Part shown: piece by piece, positions 284 through 36,589 of the stretch | Numbering within the stretch: the first letter of the stretch is position 1 | Layout: each line of letters begins with the position of its first letter | Origin: Amaranthus tricolor | Taxonomy: Eukaryota; Streptophyta; Magnoliopsida; Caryophyllales; Amaranthaceae | Reading direction: 5' to 3' | Length of the DNA stretch: 64,000 nucleotides | Assembly: GCF_026212465.1 (NCBI RefSeq) | Contig: NC_080051.1 | Span: 16,901,267-16,965,266 of the forward strand | Notes under the pieces: generated by a model | What the model saw: only the letters and a program-made list of their open reading frames with translations | The model's database searches: none | What the model was told of the DNA's origin: nothing | Position numbers and translations under genes: made by a program

Positions 284-736
284 ATGTCTTCTTCTTCTTG
301 TAGCTCTTCTTCTTGTAGCGAAAATTCGAAATCTGAAAAATGTGGCTGTGGAGTTCCCTTTGCAAGGAGGGTTTCTTGGACCAAGGAAAATCCCGGAAGA
401 AGGTTCAAGACTTGCGTATTTTATGATCCTGATACAAATTGGAGGGGATGCAAAAAGTTTAAATGGGTTGATCAACCTGAAATGACTGTTTGGCAAAGAG
501 AAGTCACTAACAAACTTGTGGAGGAGAAGCGACAATTGGAAACCGAAATCAAGGTTTTGACATCAAGGATTTGTTGCTTGGAACATGAAAAGGAACAAGC
601 ATTTTCAGAAATTAAAATTATTAAGAAGAGATGGTTGAATGAGAGGGAGCATGGAAATCAGTTTAAAAGCTTTGTATTAGGGTTTTTGTTTTGTTTTCTG
701 TTGGTGTTTCTTGTATTAATCAAGGGTACTAATTGA
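284..736 (+). CDS. GRF-type zinc finger, coiled-coil, membrane-anchored protein carried by MULE-1
   Basis: This is a 150-aa single-exon ORF. The N-terminus (1-15) is a Ser/Cys low-complexity stretch. A GRF-type zinc finger follows at about 20-63: CxC at C20/C22, the GRRFKTC block with C44, and C56 followed by KKFKW. A long charged helix predicted as coiled coil spans about 67-118 and begins TVWQRE. A hydrophobic membrane segment lies at about 128-146, followed by a short basic tail. The layout resembles the plant family annotated as At4g04775-like GRF-domain proteins. GRF fingers bind nucleic acid in other proteins (for example APE2 and TOP3A); the role here is unknown. The gene reads inward from the left TIR and is convergent with the transposase. 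The start at 284 is the first ATG of the frame and sits in a purine-rich context. The sequence from 161 to 535 is also open on the opposite strand, but that frame has no recognisable domain. Confidence 0.85.
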   Translation: MSSSSCSSSSCSENSKSEKCGCGVPFARRVSWTKENPGRRFKTCVFYDPDTNWRGCKKFKWVDQPEMTVWQREVTNKLVEEKRQLETEIKVLTSRICCLEHEKEQAFSEIKIIKKRWLNEREHGNQFKSFVLGFLFCFLLVFLVLIKGTN

Positions 737-1059
737 AGTTTAGGACCTAGTTAAGAGTAATTGTAACATGGATTTGGATATTGTAACATGATCATGATGA
801 ATGAATGAATTAAGTTTTTATTTTTTCCACTACATTTCTTTGCAAGTATTGTGTTCTGCTTGCTGTGTATGATCTGTTTGGTGTGTATGATGTTGTGTAT
901 GATGTGGTATGTTTGCTGTTTTTGGTATGTTTGCTGTGTATCATGATGGATTTGTTGCTTGGAACATGTGTCTCTTGTTTTGGTATGTTTGCTGTGTTTC
1001 CAACTAATGCTAATACATTGCACATTATATCAGTTCATTATACATGGCTCATTTGCACT

Positions 1060-1440
1060 GATGAACACTGATGAACAATGAAGATGAACATTGATTCAAA
1101 CACAGTACATACTCAGTTATTTAGCATTGAAGATGCACATTATATCAGTTCATTATATCAGTTCAGAAATTTACATTATATCAGTTCATTGAACATTGAA
1201 CATTGCTGCACTAAAACATTGAACATTGAACATTGAACATTGAACATTGAATTAAAACACAGTACATACTCAGGAACTGATTCATACACAAATCTCAGTT
1301 CAGTCTCAGTTATGAACATTGAATTCTTTTGCTTACATTATATCAGTTCATTGAACACTGAACATTGCTGCACTAATACATTGAACATTGAACATTGAAC
1401 ATTGAACATTGAATTCAAACACATATCTCAGTTCAATTAC
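1060..1440. repeat. GAACATT minisatellite between the two convergent MULE-1 genes
   Basis: Short runs of TGAACAT/ATTGAACA are repeated head to tail. They sit inside a larger unit that recurs about 1.5-2 times: TTACATTATATCAGTTCATT, then the GAACATT runs, then GCTGCACTAA, further GAACATT runs and AAACACA. The array lies between the 3' ends of the GRF gene and the transposase, where both transcripts must terminate. No open frame covers it. Confidence 0.85.
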
Positions 1441-1549
1441 TGATTTGATTACATCTAGTTCAAGATAGTACATTTTGAGTTCATTTGCTGCACTAATACA
1501 TTTCTTACATTAGATCGACAAATTACAATTAACACATACTTATGAAGCT

Positions 1550-4300
1550 CTATATTTGACTTTGTTCATCCATTACATATGTAGTACATGCATCTGTTGC
1601 ACTTAGCATTAGTTGTTCACTACTTAAGCAAGGCATGTCATTTTGTGTGGACAGTTGAGTACAAGAAGATCCCGGTTTAGGCCTTCCACCCTTTGACTTC
1701 ATCTTTGTTGGTTGTGATTTGGTTGGATTCTTGCATCCCTTTTTGTAGTGACCTAACTCACCACAATTACCACATCTCCGTTGCTTGTATTCTCGAACAG
1801 CAGTTGCAGGCTTCTTACCTCCTTTACCTTCATCAGTTTCCTTTTTCCTTTTCCTTATTTTAGGCCTTCCAGGCATCTTTCGAAATGGTGGAGGAAGAGG
1901 TTGGGCTAAAGTAGTTGTCGGCCACATTTCGCGTCCTGGCATACCATAAAACTTAGGAGCATACGTTTCTACAAGATACGCCTCATGGACAAAATCACTA
2001 GCATCTAATTTTCTACAAAGAATACAAGCCATGGCATGTTTGCAAGGGATCCCCAGAAGATTCCAACTTCCACAAAGGCAAGTCTTATTGGTCAAGTTTA
2101 CAACGTAACTTTTTTCATCATCATCCACCTCAAACTCAGACACATCTACTGGGATTACCCTCAAACCATATATTTGCTTTGAATTTTTTTCAATCATTTT
2201 GGTGATAGCTGGCATCAACACACCTTTAAATTTACCCAACCCTTCTCGTTTGGCTGCACTCCTTTGCATCACATATCTCCTAATCCACTCCATTAGAGAA
2301 ATAATGGGCTTCCCCCTAGCTTCTACTAACACGTTGTTGAATGACTCACAACAATTATTTAACAACATTCTAGACTTACTCCTACTACAAAAGGCATGCC
2401 TAAACCAATGTTTAGCAGGAATAGCAGATAGATATGCATGTGCCTCAACAGAAATATTCTTTATTGCAATCATTTCCTTATCAAAATGAAACTGTACAAG
2501 AAGATGTTATACAAATTAGTACAACATTACAGTCAAATATTTAATTCTACACATGATTTCATACCTTGTTGTAAGCTCTTGCTGCTCTCCAAAAGTGTTG
2601 TTTGTACAACTCTCCAGGAAACTTGATCTTGAAGTTAGCCCAAATATGCCTACAACAGAACCTAATTTCAGCTTCAGGAACTACTGAATTCAAAGCTTCA
2701 ATCAAACCCTGCAATGCCCATGAAGGTATAACATTAGTATTAGGTTTATAACATTAGTCACATATGAAACAAGATATTTGTTAACAACTAATTACGTTCA
2801 TACCTTTTGCCTATCGCTCATGAAGGTAAAATCTTCACATCCAGCTCGTGCACAACTACTCGATGGACTAACCGACTTCAGGTCTTCTACGAGGAGATTT
2901 AGAAACCAAGTCCAGGTTTCTACATTTTCGGTTTCAACCACAGCCCATGCAACAGGAAAGATGTTATTGTTCCCATCCTTACCTACAGCAGTCAGCAAAA
3001 CCCCAGGGAATTCTCCCTTCAAATGTGCCCCATCCACACCTATAATAGGCCTACATCCAGCAACAAAACCCTCCTTACATGCTGTCAAACATATATACAT
3101 CCTTTGAAACAAGGGTGGAGGTGTGTCTATTCCAATGCATTTCACGATTGCAGTGCTTCTTGGGTTAAACCTCCTTATCGCTTCAGCATAATCCCACACC
3201 CTACTATACTCTTCACTAGCATCACCAACGATCATTTTCTTAGCAATTCTTTTAGCCATGTAACACTTAGAATACTTCACTTCACAACCTAACTCTCTGT
3301 TAACCCGTTTCTTAAATGCCCTTAAATCCCAATTTGGATTTTCCCTCCAATCCTCTATGTATTTCTCAGCTAAATACAAGGCAGTGACTTTGTTATTTTG
3401 ATGTTGGTGACCACAAGTGTGCTCGGGAATATAACTCCTTATTTGAAGTGTCTCCTCATCTTTCAACTTCACAGCATGAACCTTAAAATAACACTTCTTA
3501 TCCTTCCCACAAACACAATTCACAATTCTAGCTTTCGATTTCACACAATCGCATCTATTGTAACAATACACACTTATCCTACTTCTACCATTATGCAAGT
3601 AATAATAATTGTAACCACATTCAATAGCATGGTACCTTAATGCTTTTCTAAAGACATATATCGAAGGAAACTTAAGGCCTAACGACAAATTGATCTTACC
3701 CTTGAAATCAACCTCGGGATTAAATGTAGCACAGCTGCCTATACCTTCCTCATCAACATTCAATGCACCCAAATCATCATCATCAGACTCCAGTTCATCA
3801 TCATTAACGTATATGTCTCTGTTGTTTTCTTCATCAATCTCCTTATCTACTATCAACCTAATTTCATCCTCACCAATAAACACATCTTCGAGACCATATA
3901 CTACATTTTCTACAAACAAATCAGAATCATCCTCATATTCATCCTCATCACTACAATTGTAATCATCATCAGTGTTATCCTCAATATCAGAAATTTGTTG
4001 ATCTATGTGGGCTCTCTCATTTGGTGTAAGGTTTAGGGCAGAAATAGCAGCTGAGGTACTTGTTTTAGATCTAGGGTTAGCACTTACACATTCTTTATAA
4101 CCCGTATATGTGTTTGGTGGTCCCATTTGCCCTACAACAACATCTACATTTGCTCTTTCCAACTCATCCACAACCTCATATGCCACATCAGATGTTTCGA
4201 GCTCCACCTCATCTACCCTAACATTACACAACTCAGTTGCCAACTCAGAATGCATCTTTTTCGAAGTACTTGCTTTTTTCCAGATTTTCAATTTCTTCAT
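1550..4300 (-). CDS. MULE-1 transposase (MuDR/MULE family), three exons, apparently intact
   Basis: Exons on the - strand are 4300-2804, 2708-2565 and 2491-1550, all with GT-AG borders (donors GTATGA; acceptors TTGCAG and TGTACAG). Joined, they give 860 aa without a stop. Residues 100-190 are strongly acidic. A Cys/His-rich MuDR-type DNA-binding region follows at about 200-300 (CVCGKDKKC, HTCGHQH). The MULE DDE catalytic core has D423 (IIGVDGAH), D496 (FMSDRQKG) and E596 (NNCCESFNN). A SWIM zinc finger (CxCx9CxH) lies at about 685-699. A CCHC zinc knuckle (CGNCGELGHYKKGC) lies at about 787-800, after a Pro/Lys-rich linker. A further donor-like GTATGT near 4492 suggests a 5'UTR intron. The enzyme cuts at the TIRs and joins the element to new sites in the nucleus. 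All catalytic and metal-binding positions I can see are present, so this copy could be active. Confidence 0.9.
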
Positions 4301-4637
4301 GTTATTGATTTATATAATTTTAAGAACCCTAATAAATTATTCAAACACAACAACAATCAATTTACAAATTACACGATAAATAACAAGAAAAAACCGCAGC
4401 CAAAACGAAGCAGATTTGAAGAAGGAATTCAATTTTAAAAATAAAAAACAACAATGAAGAAAAGAACCGTAATTGAGTAGTACTACATACCTCTAAATGT
4501 TAGAAGCTTCACCAGAAATCGATGAGATGAAGAAGTTAGAGAAGAAAGTAGCAGTGATGGTCGCAAGGAAGGAGAAGCAGATTTTCGAATGAAGAAGGAG
4601 AAGCTTTTTACATCTGAAATGAAGATGAAGGAAAGTC

Positions 4638-4815
4638 TTAAAACATCACGTGACTTGCACGTGATGGTCAACTGTTAGTTTTAACGGTCAAACCCTAAGA
4701 AACCGTTAAAAGGTAGTCTTTTGCAGAGAAATGTATTATATAAGGTAGTTTTTTGCAAAAAAATTTACATAAGCTAGTTTTTTGCAAACAAGTGTATAGA
4801 AAAGGTAGTTTAAAA
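4638..4815. repeat. MULE-1 right terminal inverted repeat
   Basis: Bases 4638-4744 are the reverse complement of 112-1, including both CACGTG palindromes (4647-4652 and 4658-4663) and the TTGAC cores. Beyond 4744 a TAGTTTTTTGCAAA motif recurs about every 35 bases (4747-4812), a sub-terminal tandem repeat that probably belongs to the TIR. The arm lies upstream of the transposase and is its likely promoter. Confidence 0.8.
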
Positions 4816-5092
4816 TAATTTTCTCTAATTATTAATATGAAAGTCCATTCTTTTCTTTTCTTGTCGTTTCTTTTTTTGTTTGTAAATTGGAAATATTGTT
4901 GATAAATACACTAATAACGTAAGAGACTAAAATCGTTGGCATAAAAAAACTCTGGGAGGAGATAAAGCCATTAAAGGAGGAAACCATGAATCAGGCCACT
5001 CAAGTTAGAAACATAAGAGTAGTCTATGCATACAACACCCATTGTTATCACTATCTTAGTGATATTACACCATTATGATGTACACACTAATT

Positions 5093-5188
<96 letters not shown>

Positions 5189-5988
5189 ATCTTTAAAATA
5201 CTAACAAATAATTTTTTTTATAATCTTTAAAGTAAATAATCTTTAAAATAAATATTATACAAGTATAACATTAACTCAAACTTTTTTCCAATCTTCATGC
5301 TATACATGACATGTGAATCTATCTAGTATCTATTAATTTTCGAATCAAATATGAAATACATATTTTATAATAATTGGAAAATGACGAATAAAATTTAGTA
5401 GACCGAATGAAATTGTACAACATTGTCCAAATAAACACTCTTACAATAAATAGTTGACAAGTAGGCATCAATGAGGCTAACTTCCTCGACTTTACCAACG
5501 AAACACAAATTTTATTACAATTATTTTATTTTGGAGTAATATTTTAGGCATCAATTGGTATAACAACACCCAATTGATAAGAATTCAACTGATAGATACA
5601 AGCAAGTAGGATGATAAGACAATCAAACCAATTATATTTGGATCATAGGATTTATATATACTCCACATTTTATCATATTTCCTAAACTTTTCTTATTTAA
5701 TATACGTATTTAAAATTATTTGCTATACACTACTATTTTTGAAAAAAACAACTAAATAAATGTCTATATTGTCGCCTTTTTTAGATCCCATACCTCATTA
5801 ATTTTTACACTTATCTCTTTAAGAGTTATAATGATCTTTTCAACTCGAATAGTGAGTAAAATAAAATAGACCAAGCATATAATATTTTTCCTAATTTAGA
5901 AAAATATTTAATAAAATAACCAAAAGGACCTCCTCTTTCTTCCTCTTTCACATGTGCAATACGTAGCAATATCGTATTCACTTAGAAA
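4816..5988. other. AT-rich intergenic spacer with TA microsatellite
   Basis: No gene is visible. A pure (TA)n tract runs from about 5098 to 5190, interrupted once by TG. ATAATCTTTAAA is repeated three times between 5188 and 5245. The rest is unstructured AT-rich sequence. Confidence 0.7.
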
Positions 5989-6982
5989 TGTTAGAATATT
6001 TTGAAGACTCAACTCCTTTAAATAATAATATTCAAAACATATATTAAAATTAAACAAATAAATTAAGTAATTATATTTAGTTGTTTAATAGGTCTAAAAT
6101 CATATTAGATATAAAGTGTTTAATTGATAAATAATTTAAGTCCAAAATTTGTTGAAATAAGTTGACTTAAGTTAAACATCTTTATAAGATAAGATTAAAT
6201 ATAAATGTATGTTTTAAGAAGTTATTACACGTTTTATCATATAATTACACGTCTTATTACTTGATAATTTGAATGAGTAATTTACTTGGTAAACAAGTTA
6301 TTAATACTAATTATAGGTTTTCCTATAAGTATGGAGTTATTTTTTAGCTCACCTAAAAAATAGGAATAATTCAAATTAAACTTAAATCTAGGATCTTTAT
6401 GTGGCTTATGTTTTTCTATTCTTTTTGTTTGAATTATTTAATGTTCAATGCTTGGCATGAGTACTAACGTGGCAGTATATTAAAGAATTGAAAGAGCTAA
6501 AAATAATAACAAAAACGTGTATTGAATAATTTATAGTGGAACGTCAGATTTTACTTGTTGTTCAAGGTTTTGAAGACTGATTTAGCATGACCAGATTGGC
6601 GAAATTATAGGATGAAGTTTCATTGGTTTGTACGACTATGTTGAGGCGTAACTTATATATAAGAGGCTTCAATCAAGAATTAAAAGATTGCAACACTACT
6701 TACAAAATAGCTTTTTGCTTACTTTGAGATTTAATATTCAAAAAGTGTTATAAACTTAGTTCATCTAGCTCTCACATTTGTAATAGGATTTAAAGTAAAA
6801 AGAGAGTTAGAATTTTAGTTTCATCTACGCCTAAAGTTTGGATACTTTTTAAAGTATTCATTTTGTTTTTTCTTTGTGAGATTAGGTTTAGATCTTTTAT
6901 TAAAGCAACTTGTAAGACGTTGTTCAAGGGGAAGAACGTGGTGAGAGAAGATAGAGAGATCTTCTAAGTCATCTAAAGTTGA
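5989..6982 (+). repeat. Possible solo LTR
   Basis: The segment begins TGTTAGAATATTTTGAAGAC, which looks like an LTR start. At about 6652 it has TATATATAAGAGGCTTC, similar to the TATA box and leader of an LTR U3-R junction. It has no long ORF. No partner LTR, primer-binding site or target duplication was found in the window, so this is only a candidate. Confidence 0.25.
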
Positions 6983-7345
6983 GACCGTCTTTATAAAAGA
7001 CGCGTCTCAAATGGGCTAGCCCATTAGTAATAAAAAAATAACTACCAGAAAAACACGCGCTATGAAATCCTATTTGAAGTTGGTGTTATAACCTATTAAA
7101 GTTGGTATCTCCAAATAGGTTATAATACCAACTTTAATAGGTTATAACACCAACTCCAAATTCCAATTTTGATAGGTTATAATACCAACTTCAATAGGTT
7201 ATAACACCAACTTCAATAGTTTATAATACCAGCTCCAAATAAAATTAAACGCACGCGTCAATTTTAGATTTTTCTCTTTTTTTTATTTGTTGGGTTTGGA
7301 CCTGAAGAGCCATCTCTTATAAAAACGATCTCTTGGAAGAGACAC
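6983..7345. mobile_element. Short element with GTCTC-hairpin ends and a 22-bp internal array (copy A)
   Basis: The left end carries a hairpin (GAGACcGTCT...AGACgcGTCTC) followed by ATGGGCTAGCCCATT. The right end (about 7287-7345) carries TTGGGTTTGGACC followed by a similar CTCTTATAAAAACGATCTCT hairpin. Inside are head-to-tail units of about 22 bp of the form GGTTATAA(T/C)ACCAACTTCAATA. Copies B (about 8088) and C (about 44990) have related ends. There is no coding potential. The class is unknown; a MITE-like non-autonomous element is the simplest reading. Confidence 0.5.
7078..7155. repeat. Perfect 31-bp hairpin inside copy A
   Basis: Bases 7078-7108 and 7125-7155 are exact reverse complements (31 of 31) with a 16-base loop. 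The arms are made from the same 22-bp unit that forms the downstream array, but inverted. Further direct copies follow to about 7235. A transcript of this segment would fold into a long, perfectly paired stem. Confidence 0.9.
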
Positions 7346-7559
7346 GGATTTCATATTTCACCATTTAAACAGTTTTTGGGTTTTAAGGGTTTAAAGCTTG
7401 AACCTTGATTTAAAATAAGCTCAAATGGATGTAAAGTTGGTTTAAAATGTAGCATATGTGAAAAAAATTAGTCTATGTCTAAACATATTTTGAGGCAGAC
7501 ATGACTATAAAAATATTAGAAAAACTACATAACCATTTTCAGGCCCGACCCATTTAGTA

Positions 7560-8075
7560 AATTCAGCTATTTAAATATTTTTCGAAAATAATATGGTTTT
7601 TTCAAAAAATAATAATTTGGAGGTGCCATTTTAAAGTTTAAGAATAAGCATTTTAAATTTTGTAATAGACATTTAAAATTTAAAATTTAACAATTTTAAA
7701 CTCTTGGAGTAGACATTTAAGTCTTATAGTAGACAATTTTAACCATTGGTGAAGGACTAAGGTTTGAAGTAGAGATTTTAAACCTTGATATTGATATAGA
7801 GATTTTAAGTATAATGGAAATTTCAACGATTACAGTATGTTGGTGAAACATAAAATTAAGACTTTGCAGAACAAACACTAAGACTTTAAGTATGAGTTTT
7901 AAGAGTTGAAATTTATATTTTAAGTCTTGGAATAAGTGTTCTAAGGATTAGAGTAGATAGTAAAAAAAAAAATTAAGTTAAGTCATTTAGTAAAAAAAAA
8001 TTAAGACTTAAAGTAGGTATATTAAATATTGAAATTGATATTTTAAATCTTAAAATCGATATTTTAAAACTTAAA
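7560..8075. repeat. Degenerate array of ~21-bp units (GTAGACATTTTAA-like)
   Basis: Motifs such as AGTAGACATTTAAGTCTT and GTAGAGATTTTAAACCTT recur irregularly every 20-24 bases across about 500 bp, then give way to copy B at about 8088. No ORF is present. The array resembles the one at 51545-51925 in period and composition, but not in exact sequence. Confidence 0.5.
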
Positions 8076-8087
8076 GTTGTTCAGCTA

Positions 8088-8345
8088 GTCTCTTGAGATA
8101 CCGTCTCTTTGAGTAATGTATCTTAAGCCCAGCCCATTAAAGATTAATGCCTACTTACCGTATTCTTAATGCTTACTTACATTATCCCTAATGCTTATTT
8201 ATCGTATCTTTAATTCCTACTTTCAATATCTTAAATATCTACTTACATCATTTTTAATGCCTACTTACAATATTTTAAAAAATGTATAATGAACCGGCCA
8301 ATTAAAAAAGGTCTATTAAAGAGCGTCTCTCACAAGAATGTGTGA
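8088..8345. mobile_element. Short element with GTCTC-hairpin ends and a 22-bp internal array (copy B)
   Basis: The left end reads GTCTCTTGAGATACCGTCTC, then CTTAAGCCCAGCCCATTAA. The right end has GAACCGGCC and GAGCGTCTCTCAC. Between them are about six units of about 22 bp of the form AATGCCTACTTACCGTATTCTT with drift. The ends resemble those of copy A (7.0 kb) and copy C (45.0 kb), while the internal unit is entirely different. Confidence 0.5.
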
Positions 8346-8880
8346 AGGTTGATAGAATAAACTTTTTTATTGGGCCACTCATACAAGCACCGGACCACGT
8401 ACAAGATTTTGTGCATATGAGGAAATGAGAATCGAATGCAGTGCCGGAGCTACCTTTGATCTCACGGGGTCACGTGTTCTTAGGCGTTTTTAAAAAAAAT
8501 TTAAGTAGACTTTTCTATTGGTAAGAGTAAAAATGTAAAATTAAAACTGAAATCTTTTAACGATAAATACTCCCTCATTTTAGTAATTTTGTCTTATTTA
8601 TTTATTTTAACTCATTTTTTGTTCCATTTTTTTTATGGTATGTCGTATTTAAAATTTTAGCAAGGGAAAATAGTTTTTAATTTTACAAATGAAATTCTAC
8701 CAAAATTTCGTCCATTAATAAATGCTAAAATTGTGAATCCGCCGCTGATCCTAAGCCATAAGCGTAAAAAGGAACGTTCGAGAAATTACTATTGTATATA
8801 ATGCTGTGATTGTGAAGGTCACTGACGGCGGGGAAGTTATGACTTAAGAGAACTGTAGTAGTCTTTAATTTGAACGCTTG
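8346..8880. other. Spacer upstream of the DCD gene
   Basis: No ORF of note. TACTCCCTCATTTTAGTAAT at about 8568 resembles one end of a Stowaway-type MITE, but I find no matching opposite end. The stretch from about 8760 to 8900 is the probable promoter of the DCD-domain gene; no single element can be assigned with confidence. Confidence 0.4.
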
Positions 8881-9003
8881 ATATTGTTTGCCCTCTCTTC
8901 ATCTCTCGCTCTCCACATAATCTACGCATAATCAGATACCACGGTTATCTTCAACGATTCTTATTCTATTCCTTCTTCAACATTCCAACTTTCTCAAATC
9001 TCA

Positions 9004-14792: not shown

Positions 14793-14846
14793 TGATTACA
14801 GACCATGGATGTTTAAGAAATATCAAGTCATTGGAATTTTAACGGG

Positions 14847-16073: not shown

Positions 16074-16326
16074 GGAGGGATCCATTGAGAAGGGTTAGAA
16101 GGACTCTACACCCTTAATTTCACTAAAACAAAAAAATCTATGGTCACGATTGAGCCAAAAAGTTATAATTGAAAAAGTAACTATGTTACACAGAAAGGTA
16201 ACTACGAAATAATTTTTAAAATGTTTTTAATTTATAACATAGTATCCTTTTTTGTATATATAGTAACCAAACAAAATCAAACAAAAATCCTTCTCACCCT
16301 TCTCATTTTAAAATCCTTCTTATTTG

Positions 16327-18889: not shown

Positions 18890-21800
18890 TGATATTTCTC
18901 CCTCTCTACATTTGAAAAATTGTCTCCTCGTTCCTAATCTTTCTCATAAATTACTTTCTGTTAGTCAATTAACTAAAGAGCTTAATTGCACTGTTCTTTT
19001 GTCTTCGACTGATTGTGTTATATAGGATGCTCAGACAGGAAAGATCATCGGTCGTGATACTAAAAGGGGAGGCTTGTACTATGTGGATGAGGTGACTCAA
19101 AAGGGTTACACTTTGCTTGCTCATGGGTCACCCGATCATCAAATGTGGATGTGGCATAGTCGTCTTGGTCATCCTTCATTGGGGTATTTGAAATGTCTTT
19201 TTCCGATCTCTTAATAATTGTAATGCACCTCTGGATTGTGAGGCATGTGTCCTAGCAAAGATTCATAAGCACACTTATTTTCCGAGTCTGACTCACAGTA
19301 TAAAACCGTTTGCTTTGATTCATTCTGATGTTTGGGGTCTAGCTCCTGAATCTAATACACATGGGCTTTCGTACTTTATTTTGTTTGTGGATGATTGTAC
19401 TCGCATGAGTTGGGTGTACTTCTTGAAACATAAATCTGAGGTCTTCGATGTTTTTGTGAAATTATATAACATACTCATAACTCAATTCCAAGCTCAACCT
19501 CAAATTCTCCGGTCAGACAATGGGGGGAAAACATAAACTTGGACATGAAACACCTCATCTCAACTCATGGCTTAATTCATCAGACCACTTGCCCAAACAA
19601 TCCACAACAGAACGGGGTTGCTGAGTGAAAAAACCGCATACTCCTTGAGATAACCCGAGCACTTATGTTTGAAGCTCATGTCCTAGCTCATTTTTGGCCA
19701 GAAGAAGTTGCCACTGCTACTTACCTAACTAATCGCCTTCCCACAAAAGCTCTCCACTTCAAAACTCCATTGGAAACACTTCAAACCCATACTACTATTC
19801 CATCTTCTCATTCCCTACCTCCTTGTATATTTGGTTGGGTTGTATATGTTCACCTTCCCAAACAAGCTCGGAATAAACTTGAACCTCATATTGGGTATGG
19901 GGTGAATCAGAAAGGCTATCGATGTTTTAATTCAATCCACAACAAACTCTATACCACCATGGACTGCGACTTCTTTGAGAGTTCATACTACTACCCCTAG
20001 CTTAGTCCTCAGGGGGAGACTATGAGTGGTGATGACTTAAGTTGGCTAGTATATCCTACTGTTATCAATCTAGATCCTATAATTGATCATGACCCTACAT
20101 AGCAAATAGGTAATCTCACAACTGTTGCCACTGAAGATATATTACATCCTCCTCCTCAGATTACTTTTGTCATGTCTGAAGCATCTAGGGAGAGGTAATT
20201 CCTAAGCCTTTGTTTGATATTGCTAATGATGTTTCTAATGTTGCGTCACCTCGCAAATATGAGTTGCCCCCAAGGAATACGAGGGGTATTCCTCCAAAGA
20301 GATATGACCCTGAGTTTGAAGCACAGCGATCTCGATACCCCATTAATCAGGATAATGTTAATAATCTTTTCCAATCTGCTGTTGCTTTTAATGCCGCCTT
20401 GTATTCGAGTTTTATACCCCGGAACGATGAAGAAGCACTTCGGAATCCGAAATGGAAGAGGGCTATGGAAGATGAAATATCAGCCCTCAAAAGGAACAAC
20501 AAATGGGAGAAATATAAGTTACCCAAAGGGAAGAAAACAGTAGGCTGTAAATGGGTGTTCTCGATCAAATATCATGCCGATAGGAACATCGAGAGATACA
20601 AAGCCCGACTGGTAGCTTAAGGGTATACTCAGACATACCGGGTAGACTACTCAGAAACTTTTTCCCCGGTTGCCAAAATTGATACAATCAGAGTCCTGTT
20701 CTCAGTAGCTGCAAATAAAGATTGACTGTAATACCAATTCGATGTAAAAAACGCCTTCCTCCATGGTGAAATTGAAGAAGTCTATATCAAAGCACCAACG
20801 GGGTTCTCAGATGAGTATGGATCAAGAGAAGGGTGTAGACTCAAAATAACGTTGTATGGTTTGAAACAATCTCCGCGAGCATGGTTTGGTAGGTTTACTA
20901 CAACAATGAAGAAATTTGGGTACAAGCAAAGCAACTCTGATCACACTTTGTTCTTGAATAAAGAGAAAGGAAGGATTACCTGTTTGATAATCTATGTTGA
21001 CAATATGGTTATCACTGGGAACAATGAAGAAGAGATTAGTAATCTGAAGAAGTTGTTTATGGAGTTCGAAATGAAAGACCTAGGAAACCTGAAATATTTC
21101 CTCGGGATTGAAGTTTTAAGGTCAAAACGAGAAATCTCCATCGATCAAAAGAAGTACATACTTGATCTCCTAGCAGAAAATGGGATGCTTGATTGTAAGC
21201 CAGCTGAAAACCCAATTGTTGCCAACCATAGGCTTCAGACAGTACAAGATGGAAAATTAGCCGATAAAGAACAATATCAAAAGTTGGTGGGAAAACTCAT
21301 CTACCTATCCCATACTAGACCTGATATTTCATATGATGTTGGGGTAGTTAGTAGATTCATGCATCTTCCACAAGTACCACATATGGAAGCAATAATGAGG
21401 ATACTTAGATATTTGAAGGGCACTAGTAGCAGAGGCAATAATGAGGACACTTAGATATTTGAAGGGCACTAGTAGCAGAGGAGTCTTCTTTAGGAAAAAT
21501 GATCATCTTGATCTCATGGCTTACACAAATGCAGACTGGGTAGGAGATCGGGATAGTAGAAAGTCTACCACAGAGTACTTTACCCTAGTAGGAGGGAACC
21601 TAGTCACCTGGAGAAGTAAGAAACAGAAGGTACTAGCTCTATCAAGTGCCGAAGCAGAGTTTAGGGGAATAGCCAAAGGAGTACCAGAGATTTTATGGCT
21701 CAAGAAACTCTTGTGCGAATTGAACTTCCCACCAAAGGAAGCTTGTAATTATTTTGTGATAATCAAGCAGCCATCAACATCTCAGAGAACCCAGTTCAAC

Positions 21801-21950: not shown

Positions 21951-21970
21951 CAACCTAACTTGAGGGGGAG

Positions 21971-22120
21971 CATAGGAATATATTATGCATATTTTTAGAG
22001 AATATTATGATTTGTAATTATTCCATAGAATATTTAGTTTCCTTATTTAGTCCTCTTAATCCTTGTATAGATAGGGCTATTATCGCTCTAGTTAATTAAT
22101 ACAAACCAAATATTCAAAAC
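21971..22120 (+). repeat. Truncated 3' LTR of the copia element
   Basis: Homologous to 17771-17931 of the 5' LTR (shared TTCCATAGAATATTT, GTTAATTAATACAAACCAA, TATTCAAAAC) and preceded by a polypurine tract. The terminal 50 bases expected from the 5' LTR are missing. Confidence 0.8.
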
Positions 22121-22486
22121 AGTTTATAGATGTAACTGCGTGAATATATTCCGGATGCTGCAACTATGAAAATTGACCGGGCAGTTTAGTAGACTTGATC
22201 CTGAAAGGCCTTGTTTTGGTTGGCGCCCAAAGCAAGGTGTTTCCTAAAAAAACAAACCAACATACTTTCGGTTGGAACCTTCATGAATGTCTTCTTACAT
22301 TTAGGTTCTTATTGGCCCTACCCATGTAAGAGTAATTGACATGCTTGATGAGTACAAACTTGGTTTTCGGTTTCATTCATCATGGGAAAGCAAAGGGTTG
22401 ACAAGGTAGTAAAAAATTAAATCTCTGCTAGACGACAATTACGTACTACAAAGTATTATCATACAGGCAAAATTTTACCTGAAGGT
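22121..22486. other. 3' flank / likely 3'UTR of the ORP gene
   Basis: Unique-looking sequence without an ORF between the truncated copia LTR and the ORP stop codon. Transcription of ORP runs leftward, so this region should hold its 3'UTR and polyadenylation site. Confidence 0.4.
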
Positions 22487-28400: not shown

Positions 28401-31400
28401 CTCCACATACCTTGTGACCAGGAAAGGCATCCTTGACAAAGAAAATAAGAATGCAAGTAAAGTGAAAAAGGAAAAATATTGAAGCTTAAAGGAAATCGGA
28501 ATACAAAGTAGGAAAACTTGTTTAGTTGTATCTTATAAGAAAGGTTCCTCTAAGCATAATAGAATAGTCATAGCCTCATAGGTTAACTTGGCTTATATAC
28601 ATTTTCACCATGTTCAAATATCTCAATTTGATTAGGGCCAATGGTCAATTTGAAATAGTTAAGTATGTTGGTGAAAAGCATACAAGTCAAGTAGTATGAT
28701 AACTATTGCGGTCGTGCGGAATCTATCCTTTTCACAATTGTGACGAGAGAGCGCAGTTGAGCTCAATTCCTCTTCAAGAGGAACATTTATCATGGAAGTG
28801 TCTACCTTAGGTGGAACCATTGTTACTAGGATCGAGGTACGATCTCGGTCGTGGAACAGGATCGGGGTCGCAATTCACTAGTGTTAGAAATTTGAGGTGG
28901 GAACGAAACGATTTTGGTTTGATTTTTTAGGTTCGCGAAATGATTTATTCTGGATCGAGGTACAATTTTGGGTCGATTACTTTAAATGAAGTACTTTCTA
29001 CCTTAAAAGTAAGATAATTTACAAGTGAAAAAATAAGAAAAGAAAAAAAAGAAAAAGAAAAGGATAGACCATAACTCTCGTTTAGTTTCATTCCCAAAGA
29101 CTAAGTTTTAATATGTTGGTTTAGAAATGGGCTTTAAACTTTAGTAGCCCAAAGGCCCAAACCTAACACTAATTATATCAAAACAAAAGAAAAAAACCCT
29201 AAGAAACTAAATGGATGGCGGTTGAACTGAAAAGGTTCATCTTCAACAACGAAATTCACAATTTCTCCATTGATGTCGAGTTCAATGCCCATTAATGGCA
29301 ATTTTTTCTTTTCTTTTTTTCAATTTTTGATAGCATTTTAAGGCTGAGATTGGATCGACTAACATGACGAACCAGATCACGTCCCCGAGCGATCCAAATC
29401 GCAAATGACCCGAAATTGGGATCGAACAATCTGGATCAGCGTACGCCTGCCAAGCCTTCGATCCAGGCTACAGTGAGTGGAACTCAAGCCTTGGATCCAG
29501 AATTATACTTTCTTGATTGTTCAAGCCTTTGAAAAGGTTAAAACTCCTATACTTGACAACCACTTTCTCAAACATATATCGTTGAATTAATCTCCTTAGA
29601 GGTTTACCTTAATGATAAATTTTTTGTCAATCTCATAAGCCTCTATCTAAACATACAATGAAATAAAAAGATGTGTTATCTCAAACTCTCCAATTTTCTC
29701 ATATTGGCACCTCGATGTTGACTCATCACATCAGGTATTGACGAAGGTCCCAAGAGTTTGCTTATTAGATTTCAGATTGTTCAGTGATTAGCAAATTAAG
29801 TTAAAATAAAGAAAAGATTCTTCCTATGCCCTGAGAGTTTTTTATCTGAAAAATTGTTGGCGCTTCTTCTCAGATAACCTTGTATGATTCTCATTCATAT
29901 TGCCTTTTTTCTAGCAGCAATTACAAATTATAGTCTTCAAAATTTTTCTTAAAACCTAGTATATTAATGTGGGACACACACAAAAAGGACTTGGAAGAGA
30001 ATACACCATCTACATAAAGGTTGCATGACAAGAAAAAATAAACATATATCCTCTAAGAAACCAATAAGCACACCAAATAGACAACATCTTTACCTTCCAA
30101 CAGGATAGACATCGAGGGAGTTCCCTAAGAATTTTGTCTTCAGCTTGGATGTCACATCATATGTAAAATGCTCATTTTCACAATGCCCAGCACTCATAGG
30201 AGGATGATGGCTCACCTAAATTGTAACAAAAAGTGTAAAATAAGCAATACCAGATTTAAAAATAGCAACATCCTAAAAGATGTCTGAGGTCAAACACACA
30301 TGAATTTGCCCCACAATTAGACAGAGAATTAATTCAAACGTCATTGCTTTGATAGAATATATACAAGCATGTGTTCATTGAAATACATTAGAAGACATAC
30401 ACACCTGCTCTGAAAGAAAAGTAATTCCATTATGATTCACCATTTCATAAGTTTCACCAAGAATAGGATTAAAAGGCTTCCATGTGCGCTGAAATGCATA
30501 ATATACAGATATTGCCCAAGATGCTGCAAACAAAATATCAAAACTTTTCACAAAAAATGATATAAAAGTAAGCCTAAGTTGTTTTAAGATTTAAGAAAGC
30601 CTCTTTACCCGCATAAACCAATCGCAAATAAGGATCTTCGCATTCATTAGCCTGATCCAACAGGTGGCAGTACTCCATTAACTGCCACAACATATACCGT
30701 ATTTTAGTGTCAATGAAATCAAAAGAAGCGTTAAGCACAGAGCACCACTGCCCAATTCTCAATGAGAAACAAGAGATCAACAAAACAAACCTCAGCCATT
30801 TTCTGCAACATAGTCATAGGCTCAAAGATTATGACTGGAAGTGTCACCATTGATGTTACATCAGATCCAATATACTTATGCATCATTTTCCAGTAACTAT
30901 CTCTCTCCTGTAAGCATCGCAAGTTGACAAAATAAGATTAACATTAGCTGCATTGTGAAAAATGAGAAACAGCCCCAAGGTATAAATATTTTCTCAGCAC
31001 AAACTCCGATAACTCTTCAAGGTTCAGCACACTAGCATTGTCTATGAAGAATGCCATCTTTAATCAAGGCGTTATTCTTTGATAATTTAATAAAGGACAA
31101 CATTGACTATGGCGAGACAACAACTAAAGCACCCAACCTTTACCCCGTCAAGAAACAATTTGAAGCCCTGAAGAAGTCTTCCTGTAGTACTTGACAAAAG
31201 ACCTACAATACATACTAAAAGTAGCTTGCTAGAAGACAAGAGACAATCTCAGATTCTCAGGAGTAAACATCCCTCTCCTTTTTAGTTGCTAAATTTTTAC
31301 TTTGTTACTATGTAGATACTCTAATTTGTGTATCGTTCATTGGTGATTTGTTATTCTGGAACAATATGTGGAATCTTGTAAGATTCGCTTTGTTGTATAA

Positions 31401-34400
31401 TTTTAAATTATTTAGTAATTATATTTTTTATATATCAATTAATGGTTGAAATTATGTTTAAACATTGCCAAGGATAAAATGAAAAATTTTGGAGCTGAAA
31501 AACTGAGGAAGAAAATGACAATGAAAGGAAAGAGAGGATAACAGGTGAGGTAAAACGTTAAACCTAAAGTATAAATGATAGCCAAACCATAATATACAAC
31601 CCGATAAAATAAAAGAAAGCATCAGCTACTTAATGGCCACCAACAATGATAGTTATACTAATAACCACTCAACAATTTAAGTATAAGGGGAACCCTGGGA
31701 GGCAAAAACCTCAAAAGCCTTCTAAATCACACCCACTCAAGCTAGGCACGACTCAAAGCACGCAGAGCCACACGCTACCCTTGTGAGAGAAAGGCTTAGA
31801 AGCCATACCCCTTGCAAGGGCACCCAAAAAGCCAAAACCTCTATTACAACCACCAAGTAAAGACTAATCAAAGCAATACGAGGAGCAAGGAGATGCAAGC
31901 TATAATAAATCCCACAAGCTTACTCTTCACAAAAATACAACACAAATGATGAAACAAAGGAGAATGCCAGCCTAGAGCCTATTGCAGCAGCCTAACGAAA
32001 CAGTGTCTCGGCAGACACCAGAAGCACAGCAGAACTAGATGACCACAAACATAGCAGCAACACAGTCAAAAGGTACACAGTCCCTGAATCCTAGCACAAC
32101 GTCTGTTAACAAACCAGCCCGCTGCACGAGAAAAGAACAGCCAACGCCTGAAATTAGGAGCACATCCAAAACATACCTACAATACAGCCCAGGTGCACCA
32201 ACTAGCAGCATCAGAGGAGATGATGTTCCAGACCCTCAGGAAGACAACAGCTAGAGGCTAAAGCTTGAACATACAAAAGTACCAGCAAACACACAGCACC
32301 AACACCAGGCTAGAGCTAGCCCAGCAGACGAGACCAGACATCCAACCCAAACAGTACAGTAGCAGAAACCTAACAGCACTATGGTCCCCTACTACCCACC
32401 ACCTTGCACTGTTGTGCAGTAGCAAATGCTATGTTAAGGGGGGCCATCCCTCCTCGGAGAAATCGGAGTCATCCAAGTCGTCGTCCTCAACCCGGAATGG
32501 ATTTTTGCAATTGTAGTTGAATAGCGAGGTAACAAAAGAGCCTTCACAAGCCGCTTCGAAGGAGCGAGTTTGGGACTTCTATTGGCTACAGGCATACAAC
32601 TCTTCCCGCTTTTTGACATAAGCAGCAGTATCGAGCTAGTGGCTTTACATAATTGTTGTTTTGGCACCCAAATTGTCCTCATCTTTGGTGGATTTATTTC
32701 CGGAGCTTTTTTTGTCCCACAACACTGACCCAACATTAGGCTTTTATAGAAAAATCTTGGCACCCATTAAAAGAAGATTTTATGTTCAAATTCATTGCCA
32801 CTGATATCCCCTACAATAATACATTTTGGAAGATCTTTAGTCACATCTACCTCCACAGGTATTCGAGCATAAGAAGCTCTCAATTGAGAGCTCGTGCATT
32901 CATCTCCATACATGCGAAGTCCTAAAACACTCCCAATTCAGCCAAAAGATCCCTCCCCCCAACAATTGAGTGGGAGGTTCGACAATTTAACCCACAATGG
33001 AATACATCTTAGAATTTTCTTCCTGCAATCAAACCCTTCAATCCATTTTCTAACCATAACATGTCTAGACCCCATTGTTGCTTCGAGAGAATTCAATATA
33101 GTTTGATATCTTCTTTAAAGGCACATTTCACAATGTAGAAAGCATCCCAATAAAGCTAAAAGAAATGTTTAATGAAAGGATCAAGGAAATAAGCGAGGAT
33201 CATTATCAAAGCAGTGCTACCATATGAATCAGTATGTCTGGCTTTTAGAAAGGATCATAATAGAATGATGGAAGTAGCGGAAATGTGAATGTTTCGATGG
33301 ATGAGGGGGCGTACTTTGAAGGTTAGAAGTTGAATCAAAGATATAAGAAAGAATTTAAAAATTGCAAATATTGAAGAAAAAGGTGAAAGAGAATTGTTTA
33401 AGATGGTTTAAACATGTACAAAGATAGGGTATAAGCGAACCGATAAGGAAGATAGAAAGTAAGAGATAGGGAGACTAAAGAGGGCGAGGAAAATCAAAGA
33501 TGACTTAAAGGGCTGGATTGGAAAGGATGTAAAGGATCTAGACTTACAGATTGAGATGGTTAAAAGTCAAAATTTCTGCATAGAAGAAGAATTTACGTGA
33601 ACGACCATTAAAACTAATATATGGTTTATGTAGTCGATCTCAATCTTTAGGGACAAAAGCTTGATGTTGTTGTTTCCACTAAGTAGTTGTTTGTTATATG
33701 AGGTAAAATGGAAAGGAAATAGAATCAGAAAAGAGGGGGTAATGTACAATGTAAACGTTACTTTCCCTACTTGTTTGGTTTTACCTAAGTAACAAAATCA
33801 ATACTTATAGCTCAACAATCAAACTTTTGTTGTTCTTAGGGCTTCTTTCAGCCATTATTCTCTTTCTTCTCAAAACCAACATCTCTTATCTACTCTTATA
33901 TCTAGCATATTCCTTTATTTCCTCTTTCCTAAAATTTAATTACCACAAAAAACTTGTTTGATATATCAATTGCCATTGAAACTCCATACCAATTATTGTT
34001 TTCATCAAGAAGAAAATCTATTCTTTATCCCAAATTATTCGGATCTTTCCAAATTCTCTATCCTCTTCAACAAGAAAAGAAAACATATGATAGAGGTTAA
34101 ATTACAAACCTTACATTATTTTAGGTTTATTTAGGGCTTTAACTTTTGAAATTGTGGTTTTTAATTTTACAATCTCTTCGTATTAATTGCAGTGATTGGT
34201 CGATTGTGCTGGTTGGTGCATGTTGTGGTGGTGATCGGTTATACAAGTTTGGCGGTGGTTGGCTTGTGGGATAAGGACGGATTATTAGGCTTCGTGCGAG
34301 AAAGAAGGTGAAAAAGGTTACAACAGAGCTGAAAGAAATATACAAACACATGTTTTCATGAATTTGTTTCCGGTAATATCTGTTTGGTAACATTGTAACG

Positions 34401-35547
34401 GTATTGGTTACCTTAAACAAATGGAAAGGATAACCATCTCTTAAACCCAACAACAAATAAGAGATTAGCTTAATAAAATTTGTTTCTTGAGTCTAATAAT
34501 GCATACCATACAGCCCCTAAGAATATTGATTCCTAATATTTTCAACACTCAAGTTACATTCGTAAAATAATTGTGATAGTAAGATACATTTGCAAAATAT
34601 TTGTGGTGGTACTAGAAATCCCTGGCCATAAAAAGGAAGCTAAAACCCTAGTCTCTCGGTTTGAAAGAAAAAGTTTAAGGCTTTCGGTAAAAAATTTAAA
34701 GAAATAGAAATATTGAGTATAACCATAGCTTGTAGAAAACAAGGACTATATAGCTTGCAATTGCACAATTTTTAACTATACTCTTTTCTACTGAATTATA
34801 TTATGAGCACTTTAAGTCTCTAGCTATATTTTGGATCGCCTCATTCTTGCATTACGTTTCCCCAATGCCAGCAAGGTTGTGTAATGGGGAGTCAAATGTA
34901 TGACACGTACACTCCTAATACAAAAGCCCGAGACATCAATATGCAAATTTGCTACATAATACAGTACCAATGTCATTGCTCGAAAAATACCAATACGAAG
35001 TTTTATCTTCTAAGATCATTGATTTAAAACAACACAACCTCAAAGTCCCATATTTTCTTACGTACAAACATCAAGACAACATTGTTGATTAAAAAATGTT
35101 AATTATATGCACACAAACACACGACACACCTCTTGCTTCCACCTTCCTTTGTGTGCTTCTTCCTCTGCATCATCTTTACCTCCTTCAGGATTTACAACTT
35201 CCAAATTCTCATAACCTAATAACCTACAAAAAAATTAGATTTACTTAATTGTTTTCCAATGTAAGAAATAATTGTAATCAAATTAATTAATTAATAATAA
35301 CAATAAAAAATACTAACTCACCAACACAAAACATAACAAAATCAGCATAAAATCGAATTGAAACTAAAATCAATGTTCAGGGATGCCCATTATTAATTCA
35401 ATTTGACATAAAAGGTAAAACGGGAAAGAGAGAGAAAGAGATGAACCCATTGACGGATCGATGCATGGCGTTACTGAACATTGATAAGCTTGACGACATT
35501 GAAGCGAAAAATCCCTTATTTTCCAACTTGTTCCTGGAGCTTGACAT
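22487..35547 (-). CDS. ORP3: Oxysterol-binding protein-related protein, ORP3 type
   Basis: Ten exons on the - strand: 35547-35447, 35223-35130, 30907-30791, 30681-30609, 30523-30405, 30215-30094, 25596-25420, 24814-24670, 24247-24069 and 22733-22487. All have GT-AG borders and the phases add up to 1374 nt, or 457 aa, the usual length of plant short ORPs. The protein is a stand-alone OSBP-related lipid-transfer domain without a PH domain. The family signature EQVSHHPP is at about 167-174. Other diagnostic blocks are [57 protein letters not shown] and [17 protein letters not shown]. ORPs carry sterols or phosphoinositides between membranes; Arabidopsis ORP3a is known at the ER. No inactivating change is visible. 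Introns 2 (4.2 kb) and 6 (4.5 kb) are swollen by insertions, and MULE-2 starts about 230 bp upstream of the ATG. Confidence 0.93.
22806..23101. mobile_element. MITE with ~100-bp inverted repeats (ORP intron 9)
   Basis: Left arm 22806-22905 and right arm about 22995-23101 are inverted copies. Shared blocks are GGGAAAAATTAC at the tip, AATAATACAACTTT, CCCTACAATAATAC, ACTTTTGATTAACCATGAAT and ACTTAGGGGT. CAATTT occurs next to both tips and may be part of the target duplication. Long TIRs for the size suggest a Mutator-derived MITE, but that is inference. Confidence 0.8.
25597..30093. other. ORP intron 6 (4.5 kb)
   Basis: A very large intron for this family. No recognisable transposon ORF was found. 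Between about 28690 and 29480 the composition changes: it is richer in GC, with repeated GATCG/GGATCG words. A promoter-like stretch with a short ORF (29100-29295, separate entry) lies within it. The remainder is ordinary AT-rich intron sequence. Confidence 0.6.
29215..29295 (+). other. Promoter-like segment with a 26-codon ORF inside ORP intron 6
   Basis: On the + strand, antisense to ORP, GGCCCAAA and GCCCAAA motifs at about 29146-29160 and an AAACCCTAA telobox at about 29195 precede an ATG at 29215. The ORF reads [20 protein letters not shown] plus six residues, then stops. Site II (GGCCCA) plus telobox is the promoter signature of plant housekeeping and ribosomal-protein genes. I do not recognise the peptide. 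It may be a captured first exon with its promoter, or coincidence. Confidence 0.3.
31680..33110 (-). pseudogene. L1-type LINE ORF1 (DUF4283-like) fragment
   Basis: On the - strand, 32880-32430 encodes [20 protein letters not shown], then a [14 protein letters not shown] strand, a TAA stop, and [17 protein letters not shown]. This matches the usual plant L1 ORF1 pattern of a DUF4283 domain, then a valine-rich strand, then a degraded zinc knuckle. Composition from 31680 to 32430 is GC-richer than the surroundings and probably belongs to the same insertion. Frames are broken throughout. No RT domain is present, so it is a 5'-end fragment. Confidence 0.6.
33150..33690 (+). mobile_element. RTE-like LINE 3' end
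   Basis: The + strand encodes remnants of the LINE reverse-transcriptase C-terminus (VAEM..FRWMRG, then an [20 protein letters not shown] block) and ends ATGTAGTCGATCTCAATCTT...TTGATGTTGTTGTT. A short TTG repeat after a CATGTAGTCGAC-like motif is typical of plant RTE ends. The same 3' end occurs at 51938-52345. 5'-truncated and full of stops. Confidence 0.65.
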
Positions 35548-35774
35548 GTTTTGACTTGGAATTGAAATTTGATTGGGAAGTGAATTGGGGATTGCGATGC
35601 AAAACCCTAAGTTACGCGAAATCGATCAGATAATATCAATTTGAATAAGGAGAGTGGAGACTGTGCGCGCTTCTAAAGTTCTAAACATAAGGTATGGAAT
35701 GGAAGTGATCAAGTGACATTAATGAATAGTTGACATCTATTAACAGTTTTGAAAGGCCATGTTTTTTTTTTCGA
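35548..35774 (-). promoter_or_regulatory. Compressed upstream region of ORP between its ATG and MULE-2
   Basis: Only about 230 bases separate the ORP start codon from the tip of MULE-2. They include the 5'UTR. No clear TATA box can be assigned. The remainder of the ORP promoter is either lost, pushed beyond 41.4 kb, or supplied by the MULE-2 terminal repeat. The segment ends in a T10 run (35762-35771). Confidence 0.5.
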
Positions 35775-36000
35775 GAAAAATTAAAAAAAATTAGATAATT
35801 TAACAAGCTTTATTCAAAAAACAAGCTTTGGAAAATTTTATTTTCAAAATAAGCGTTCTTGCCTCTAAAGTTAGGCTTGGTGTAAACTCGCTCTTACTAA
35901 CAGCGAATTAAAGCAAATGGTCAAAATTTGTGTCAAGCCTCAAAACCTTAATGTCGCTGTTACTAACAACGACTTGAGGCTTGAGTGGTTTGACTTTTAT
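35775..36000. repeat. MULE-2 left TIR
   Basis: Inverted match to the right TIR. It contains two degenerate copies of the palindrome TCGCTGTTACTAACAGCGA (about 35887-35908 and 35953-35973), in the same relative order as the copies in the right TIR. It lies upstream of the GRF gene on one side and the ORP start codon on the other. Confidence 0.85.
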
Positions 36001-36271
36001 TGACTTTCTTGTTTGAATTAAACTAGTCATTGTTAAATTGAAAAATAGTCGTTATGAAGTTGAAAATAGCCGTTGTTATTATGTGTTATAAATAACTTCA
36101 TCATTTCCCTACTTCATTGTATCCAATCTCCATCATTCTTATTCTAGTTAATCTAGTTAATCATTTTTTAAAGGTAACATAAGGTATTATGTTAGTGTTA
36201 TTCTCAATTTATAAATGTTAATATTATTTTTGAATGTTTACTTACGTTACTATATCATATGTGTTCCGTAG

Positions 36272-36589
36272 ATGTCACAGGAACATTCTATTGAAGAGCT
36301 TTGTGATTGTGGCTATGAAGTTGAGATTAATACAGATTGGAGCGACTTCGATCCTGACCGTGATTTTGTTGCTTGTTCTTTCTACTTGGTTGAAGGATTA
36401 GGTTGCACATACTTTAAATGGATTGCTCCGGAGGGTACCAAATGGCAGAGAGACTTAATAATACGGCTTGAAAAAGAAAAACAAGAGCTTAAAGATGAGA
36501 TATTTAATCTCAAGAGACAAATAGATGATATGGCACATAGGAAAGAAGAGACTGAAAGGATTATGAGAAAGTTTAAGAAACAATCTTAG
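36272..36589 (+). CDS. GRF-type zinc finger and coiled-coil protein carried by MULE-2
   Basis: A 105-aa ORF. The zinc finger at about 11-50 has CDC (C11, C13), DFVACSF (C35) and GLGCTYFKW (C45). A coiled-coil helix spans about 57-100, starting TKWQRDLIIRLEKEKQELKD. The W-Q-R-[ED]..L..EK..L..EI block aligns without gaps to the MULE-1 GRF protein. Unlike that protein it has no membrane segment and no Ser/Cys N-terminus. A CGTAG acceptor directly before the ATG and a GGTAACAT donor near 36173 suggest a 5'UTR intron. The gene reads inward from the left TIR. It is the only intact gene in this element and lies head to head with ORP (725 bp between the two start codons). Confidence 0.85.
   Translation: MSQEHSIEELCDCGYEVEINTDWSDFDPDRDFVACSFYLVEGLGCTYFKWIAPEGTKWQRDLIIRLEKEKQELKDEIFNLKRQIDDMAHRKEETERIMRKFKKQS

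What the first reader, a model, noticed from the sequence alone, without database searches (positions are those of the whole stretch)
284..36589. A GRF zinc-finger/coiled-coil gene occupies the mudrB-like position in two different MULEs
Seen: both MULEs in this window (1-4815 and 35775-41399) have a small + strand ORF reading inward from the left TIR and a transposase reading inward from the right TIR. Both small ORFs encode a CxC..C..C GRF finger followed by a coiled coil. Outside the finger they share W-Q-R-[ED]-x4-L-x2-E-K-x2-L-x2-E-I without gaps. Known: maize MuDR carries mudrA (transposase) and a convergent mudrB, and mudrB is required for reinsertion. Inference: GRF proteins may be a recurrent accessory factor of plant MULEs, for DNA binding, insertion or countering silencing. 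I do not recall such a role being described.
Basis: partly seen in the sequence, partly recalled or inferred. Interest (0 to 1): 0.9.

Follow-up and report, generated by a model that had tools for sequence, protein, structure and literature searches.

The report
Zinc-finger helper gene in plant transposons
In an amaranth genome, at least three families of Mutator-like jumping genes carry, facing their transposase gene, a small zinc-finger gene found open in hundreds of copies, which suggests an unrecognised helper protein for moving or expressing the element.

Summary
Both ORFs are GRF-type zinc ribbons followed by a long helix, homologous to each other, and each faces a MULE transposase between terminal inverted repeats. 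In 32 fetched GRF1 loci, transposase was detected in 28, always downstream on the opposite strand; both TIRs were found in 25, and 20 of those 25 have a perfect 9-bp target duplication (control 0 of 250). For GRF2, 48 of 48 GRF2-transposase pairs within 8 kb are convergent (0.8 pairs expected by random placement). A third family (L045; transposase 42-46% identical to the first) has the same layout. The finger shows dN/dS 0.22. Element 2 also carries a plant mobile domain. The recurrent accessory gene is supported; its function is inferred. Antisense accessory ORFs in MULEs are known; I found no paper naming a GRF one. The 150 best-scoring MULE domains have no listed GRF nearby: family-specific, not universal.

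The parts
1..113 (+). left TIR of element 1 (its outer end lies outside the window)
   Evidence: outer bases withheld
284..736 (+). GRF1: GRF zinc ribbon (aa 19-64), helix/coiled coil (from aa 69), hydrophobic C-terminal segment (about aa 130-146)
2804..4300 (-). element 1 transposase, exon 1 (DBD_Tnp_Mut, MULE domain)
   Evidence: exon ends read by eye from splice sites
2565..2708 (-). element 1 transposase, exon 2 (approximate)
   Evidence: splice sites read by eye
1550..2491 (-). element 1 transposase, exon 3 (SWIM, weak CCHC)
4645..4825 (-). right TIR of element 1, terminus GAGAAAATT
35773..35943 (+). left TIR of element 2
36272..36589 (+). GRF2: GRF zinc ribbon plus helix, no hydrophobic tail
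37629..38388 (-). plant mobile domain (PF10536) gene in pieces, third gene of element 2
38733..40529 (-). element 2 transposase in pieces: N-terminal weak PB1, MULE domain (within 39240-39859), weak SWIM
41231..41400 (-). right TIR of element 2

Best explanation
GRF1 and GRF2 are element-encoded accessory genes, convergent with the transposase and read inward from the opposite TIR, in at least three MULE families of Amaranthus. Shown: position, orientation, copy number, mobilisation with the element, and constraint on the finger. Inferred: the protein dimerises through its helix, and its GRF ribbon binds single-stranded DNA or exposed ends, as APE2's GRF finger does. It helps the excised element insert, or guards its ends, in the way mudrB serves MuDR. 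In tail-bearing members it would do this from the nuclear envelope/ER membrane. I put the accessory-gene step at about 0.95 and the DNA-end/insertion role at about 0.4.
For: GRF1: 32 loci fetched. Transposase detected in 28 of 32, always downstream on the opposite strand. Both TIRs found in 25 of 32, only the left in 6 (short slices), only the right in 1. Exactly at the TIR ends, 20 of 25 have a perfect 9-bp duplication and 1 has one mismatch; a shifted-end control gives 0 of 250. GRF2: 48 of 48 GRF2-Tnp2 pairs within 8 kb convergent, random placement mean 0.82, max 5. Two database proteins (P0021, P0022; species not given) fuse GRF2 to the antisense of the same transposase at different points. 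Third family: L045 has inverted repeat, GRF and a facing transposase; L046 has GRF and facing transposase remains, no TIR seen. Finger dN/dS 0.22 (codon bootstrap 0.09-0.60), coil 0.45, whole gene 0.55. GRF and transposase distances correlate (Mantel r 0.72, 0 of 5000 permutations, 15 elements). Nearest solved structures are NEIL3 GRF fingers; APE2 GRF binds ssDNA (PMC8593216, passages); mudrB is required for Mu integration (PMC8224964, passages).
Against: No expression or biochemical data. Copies were found by GRF protein score, which favours intact copies and lowers dN/dS. The tail's dN/dS is 0.90, the N-terminus 0.97, and the hydropathy test is marginal (51 of 1000 simulations reach the observed value). 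GRF2 has no tail. The 150 best-scoring MULE domains of the genome have no listed GRF within 8 kb, so it is not needed for MULE transposition in general. The window proteins score below Pfam's GRF cut-off, and the fold match has E 0.23-0.26. Five of 25 loci lack a perfect target duplication (L016, L025, L028, L033, L039). No homology to MURB was tested.
Confidence: 0.6

Rival explanations
1. GRF is an anti-silencing or regulatory factor (VANC-like): it binds the TIR or the element and relieves silencing, rather than assisting insertion.
For: VANDAL MULEs encode VANC anti-silencing proteins (PMC5735166, passages); the authors of PMC5418596 (passages) speculate that PMD genes captured by MULEs serve anti-silencing, and element 2 carries a PMD. 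The gene sits beside the left TIR in all 31 of 32 family-1 loci where that TIR was found.
Against: APE2's GRF ribbon binds ssDNA in repair. A membrane tail is odd for a chromatin factor. No methylation data.
Confidence: 0.25
2. A captured host gene fragment that hitch-hikes (Pack-MULE) with no function for the element.
For: MULEs capture host genes. In 4 of 32 loci GRF is kept while no transposase is detected (L009, L010, L011, L024).
Against: Same position and orientation in three families, constraint on the finger, open frames in 111 of 150 and 110 of 150 scored copies, co-divergence with the transposase, and presence in elements with transposase.
Confidence: 0.07
3. A cis-acting or envelope-tethering role: the tailed protein anchors the element or its transposase at the nuclear envelope/ER to favour replication timing, target choice or cis preference; GRF2 is a derived soluble form.
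For: Hydrophobic tail in 62 of 94 GRF relatives outside the GRF2 group, and a hydrophobic segment elsewhere in only 2 of 105 (from the listed best 120 of 433 homologues plus earlier hits); 4 of 544 polar residues in the GRF1 tails; four GRF-only elements with perfect target duplications.
Against: GRF2 family has no tail (0 of 12); tail selection test marginal; localisation untested.
Confidence: 0.15

Closest known systems
maize MuDR mudrB (MURB)
   Same: second gene, convergent with the transposase, read inward from the other TIR; a helper needed for insertion (PMC8224964, passages; PMC6446971, passages; convergence partly recalled)
antisense plant mobile domain (PMD) ORFs of plant MULEs (PMC6446971, passages)
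   Same: recurrent, often antisense second ORF in many plant MULE clades
   Different: unrelated domain; in element 2 the PMD lies on the transposase strand and GRF on the other
ORFR of Abermu MULEs (PMC9168764, passages)
   Same: ORF opposite to the transposase, Ka/Ks below 1, fast evolving, of unknown function
   Different: no domain named in the passages; the word GRF does not occur in the main text
VANB/VANC of VANDAL/Hiun MULEs
   Same: element-encoded accessory proteins beside a MULE transposase
   Different: the words GRF, zinc finger, coiled and transmembrane do not occur in the main text of PMC5735166; no sequence comparison made
Zf-GRF of APE2 and NEIL3 (PF06839)
   Same: zinc ribbon with the GRxF...C signature; best fold and profile match is NEIL3
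   Different: those are domains of repair enzymes; here a stand-alone ribbon plus helix plus, often, a hydrophobic tail
'GRF-type domain-containing' plant proteins, At4g04775-like, DUF730 (PF05325)
   Same: 433 homologues by profile, 120 listed, many with the same helix-tail plan; DUF730 matches 5 of 15 aligned members at E up to 0.1
   Different: annotated as host genes; at least the 168-aa Amaranthus tricolor protein P0041 appears to lie in a MULE remnant (L046)

Membership tests
Mutator-like element (MULE) | long TIRs | tested here: met
   (the four TIR queries come from L010, L012, L022, L027 themselves)
Mutator-like element (MULE) | 9-bp target-site duplication | tested here: met
   20 of 25 family-1 loci perfect, control 0 of 250; window element 1 not testable (withheld bases), element 2 ambiguous in poly-T
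Mutator-like element (MULE) | MULE transposase domain PF10551 | tested here: met
   32.6 bits element 1, 42.8 bits element 2, cut-off 27.6; L045 26.8 bits, just below
GRF zinc ribbon (PF06839) | Pfam curated cut-off | tested here: not met
   GRF1 16.3, GRF2 16.9 bits against 25.9; the relative GRF of L045 passes with 29.0 and P0041 with 30.9
GRF zinc ribbon (PF06839) | CxC..C..C with GRxF and fold like solved GRF fingers | tested here: met
   C20, C22, C44, C56 invariant in alignment A3 (in A1, P0005 lacks the second Cys); Foldseek top three are NEIL3 GRF, prob 0.96-0.97 but E 0.23-0.26 (GRF1 model only); window GRF2 has DRDF, some members GREF
mudrB | convergent second gene read from the opposite TIR | tested here: met
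mudrB | sequence homology to MURB | not tested
   no MURB sequence was at hand
mudrB | required for reinsertion | not testable with these tools
   needs a transposition assay
Pack-MULE | captured host fragment in an element without transposase | tested here: not met
   28 of 32 loci still hold transposase sequence; 4 do not
VANC-type anti-silencing protein | sequence similarity to VANC; hypomethylation of own element | not tested
   no sequence or methylome at hand
tail-anchored membrane protein | single C-terminal hydrophobic segment after a cytosolic/nuclear domain | tested here: inconclusive
   mean hydropathy over 17 residues above 3 near the C-end in 8 of 9 close GRF1 relatives P0001-P0009, the exception P0008 ending early; hydropathy simulation marginal; localisation untested

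The most novel reading that the evidence does not exclude
Stand-alone GRF-helix-tail proteins, now annotated across angiosperms as hundreds of uncharacterised host genes, are largely the second gene of several MULE lineages. They form an ancient transposition helper that co-diverges with its transposase and works from the nuclear envelope/ER membrane by gripping single-stranded ends.
Probability: 0.25. Interest if true: 0.88.

Novelty: new variant of a known kind. Interest (0 to 1): 0.72.

Why it matters
Why MuDR needs a second gene, and what replaces it in other MULEs, is an old question. A small accessory protein with a recognisable domain, kept in three MULE families, makes it testable: binding, localisation and transposition assays can be run on 105-150 aa proteins. 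It would also reclassify many 'GRF-type domain-containing' plant genes as transposon genes; one paper lists GRF-type fingers among domains enriched in Asteraceae, beside transposon domains (PMC10359422, one passage).

Tried and rejected
Viral-contig scans with both GRF alignments found no relative. Paper searches with GRF plus MULE/transposon words found no paper linking the two: none; one (wheat QTL, passages, unrelated); four (one opened), 25 of 104 listed, 12 listed, of which PMC5418596 and PMC10469895 were opened, while PMC13148073, PMC11734081 and PMC12320393, which hold both kinds of word, were not. Pack-MULE hitch-hiking was rejected on position, constraint and recurrence. A chance pattern match was rejected by copy number and constant layout. 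The idea that every MULE has a GRF was rejected, with the caveat that each GRF list holds only 150 scored copies. The hydropathy test used a wrongly placed segment (residues 123-143; it gave 1 of 500) and is discarded; one search replaces it and is only marginal. My first CDS pattern dropped four loci, two because they were not turned; one search uses 32 fetched loci plus the window. The first target-duplication searches were looser and gave 11 perfect 9-bp cases of 20 loci and none for L033, L034, L039, anchored at the TIR ends, replaces them. A genome-wide search with transposase 1 did not complete, so the reciprocal count for family 1 is missing. No fold search was run with the GRF2 model (mean pLDDT 69). 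L001-L008 were only partly used.

Full report
WHAT IS THERE. The window holds two MULEs, each with a small plus-strand ORF near the left TIR and a minus-strand transposase. Both small ORFs carry a CxC...C...C ribbon followed by a long helix. Pfam's GRF model scores both below its cut-off; profile and fold searches put NEIL3 GRF fingers first (GRF1 model only, prob 0.96-0.97, E 0.23-0.26). The AlphaFold model of GRF1 has two clear strands in the ribbon and one helix from residue 69 to 149 (mean pLDDT 79). GRF2 also shows strands then a helix (57-104) but with lower confidence in the ribbon (mean pLDDT 69).

HOST. The genome G000 has 519.85 Mb in 45 contigs. Its contig C4 is 34,495,491 bases long, the same length as the contig of a protein named Amaranthus tricolor LOC130810758 (P0041). 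I infer Amaranthus tricolor.

FAMILY 1. The GRF1 search scored 150 of 948 candidates; 111 of the 150 have no internal stop (my count). I fetched 32 loci, chosen down the ranking and not at random: 20 (one, L015, cut short by my own choice), 4, 8. GRF1 was present in all, by design. Transposase was detected in 28 of 32, in each case downstream and on the opposite strand. Both TIRs were seen in 25, only the left in 6 whose slices end early, only the right in L032. Exactly beside the TIR ends, 20 of the 25 have a perfect 9-bp target duplication and one (L016) has one mismatch; L025, L028, L033 and L039 have none. The same test with the right end shifted gives 0 of 250. Four loci (L009, L010, L011, L024) hold GRF but no detectable transposase, and all four have perfect duplications, so they are complete elements, whether the deletion came before or after insertion. 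L009 and L010 are 97-99% alike over shared parts. L040 holds four tandem GRF copies inside one element. GRF and transposase distances correlate across 15 elements (Mantel r 0.72, 0 of 5000 permutations).

FAMILY 2. The GRF2 search scored 150 of 1118 candidates; 110 of the 150 have no internal stop (my count). The transposase-2 N-terminal search scored 150 of 1754. Forty-eight of the 150 GRF2 copies (the window's own among them) have a listed transposase within 8 kb, and all 48 are convergent (median distance 3.4 kb). Random placement gives 0.82 pairs on average and 5 at most. Within 50 kb the counts are 53 convergent and 3 otherwise. In the three other GRF2 loci held, L043 and L044 show a match to the left TIR upstream of the gene (76-78% over most of it); L042 shows only two short pieces. 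Two database proteins of unstated species, P0021 and P0022, are GRF2 read through into the antisense of the same transposase, at two different points (95% identity over 81 aa, 82% over 45 aa). They look like independent deletion derivatives. Element 2 also holds a plant mobile domain in pieces on the transposase strand.

A THIRD FAMILY. The Pfam GRF search gave 47 hits, none of them in the family-1 list and 2 in the family-2 list. In L045 a 145-aa frame with GRF, helix and tail faces a transposase that is 42-46% identical to transposase 1, with an inverted repeat (93 bp, identical) on both sides. In L046 a 180-aa frame, whose last 32 residues are those of P0041, faces transposase remains; no TIR was seen in the 5 kb held, and other ORFs between look like an inserted hAT element (my reading). 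The 150 best MULE domains of the genome have no listed GRF within 8 kb, so many MULEs seem to do without it. That test is limited because each GRF list holds only 150 scored copies.

SELECTION AND TAIL. Over 33 GRF1 sequences (NG86, pooled pairs) dN/dS is 0.55 for the gene (bootstrap 0.38-0.83), 0.22 for the finger (0.09-0.60), 0.45 for the coil (0.24-0.89), 0.90 for the tail (0.39-2.97) and 0.97 for the N-terminus (0.41-3.14). The sample was found by protein score, which biases these down. The C-terminal 17 residues stay strongly hydrophobic (4 polar residues of 544), but a simulation gives only marginal support for selection on hydropathy (51 of 1000). Among 105 database relatives with the finger (out of 124 proteins in hand; 120 of 433 hits were listed), 62 have a hydrophobic segment in the last 45 residues and 2 elsewhere. 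None of 12 GRF2-type proteins has it.

MECHANISM. An element-encoded accessory gene is the reading that best explains constant place and orientation, constraint and recurrence. What it does is inferred. APE2's GRF finger binds single-stranded DNA (PMC8593216, passages), and mudrB, in the same position in MuDR, is required for Mu integration (PMC8224964, passages). I therefore favour a helper that grips exposed ends and aids reinsertion, with membrane tethering in tailed members. Anti-silencing in the manner of VANC is the main rival (PMC5735166, passages).

WHAT IS KNOWN. Additional ORFs in MULEs, often antisense, are described: mudrB, MutB, vanB/vanC and PMD (PMC6446971, passages), and the ORFRs of Abermu, which differ between distant species (PMC9168764, passages). 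The word GRF does not occur in the main text of PMC6446971, PMC9168764 or PMC5735166. My searches found no paper linking GRF fingers to MULEs; not every listed paper was opened, and subscription papers and Repbase notes were not searched. So this is a new variant of a known kind, MULE accessory genes, with a domain that suggests a biochemistry.

Noticed in passing
window 37629-38388 (-): plant mobile domain (PF10536) fragments make element 2 a three-gene MULE
   Followed up: partly
L040: four head-to-tail copies of the GRF1 gene (790-bp unit) inside one MULE
   Followed up: partly
L009, L010, L011, L024: elements that keep an open GRF1 frame and perfect 9-bp target duplications but have no detectable transposase
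   Followed up: partly
G000 C3:3143974, 3191472, 3238982 and C3:629875, 677399: GRF1 copies spaced about 47.5 kb apart, suggesting large tandem segmental repeats that carry a MULE
   Followed up: no
G000 C7:8034410-8054147: array of at least 12 GRF-domain frames (169 aa), about 1.8 kb apart
   Followed up: no
L011 7165-7567: about 400-bp stretch with both TIRs of family 1 and no room for the gene
   Followed up: no
L046: ORFs that look like an hAT transposon lie between the GRF and the rest of the MULE; my reading, no family search made
   Followed up: no
protein list: GRF-matching plant proteins carry misleading names such as DNA topoisomerase 3-alpha, cyanogenic beta-glucosidase and capsule polysaccharide export protein
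   Followed up: no
window 57807-61440 (-) and 20732-21451 (+): ORFs that read like copia-type retrotransposon polyprotein pieces (my reading, no family search made)
   Followed up: no
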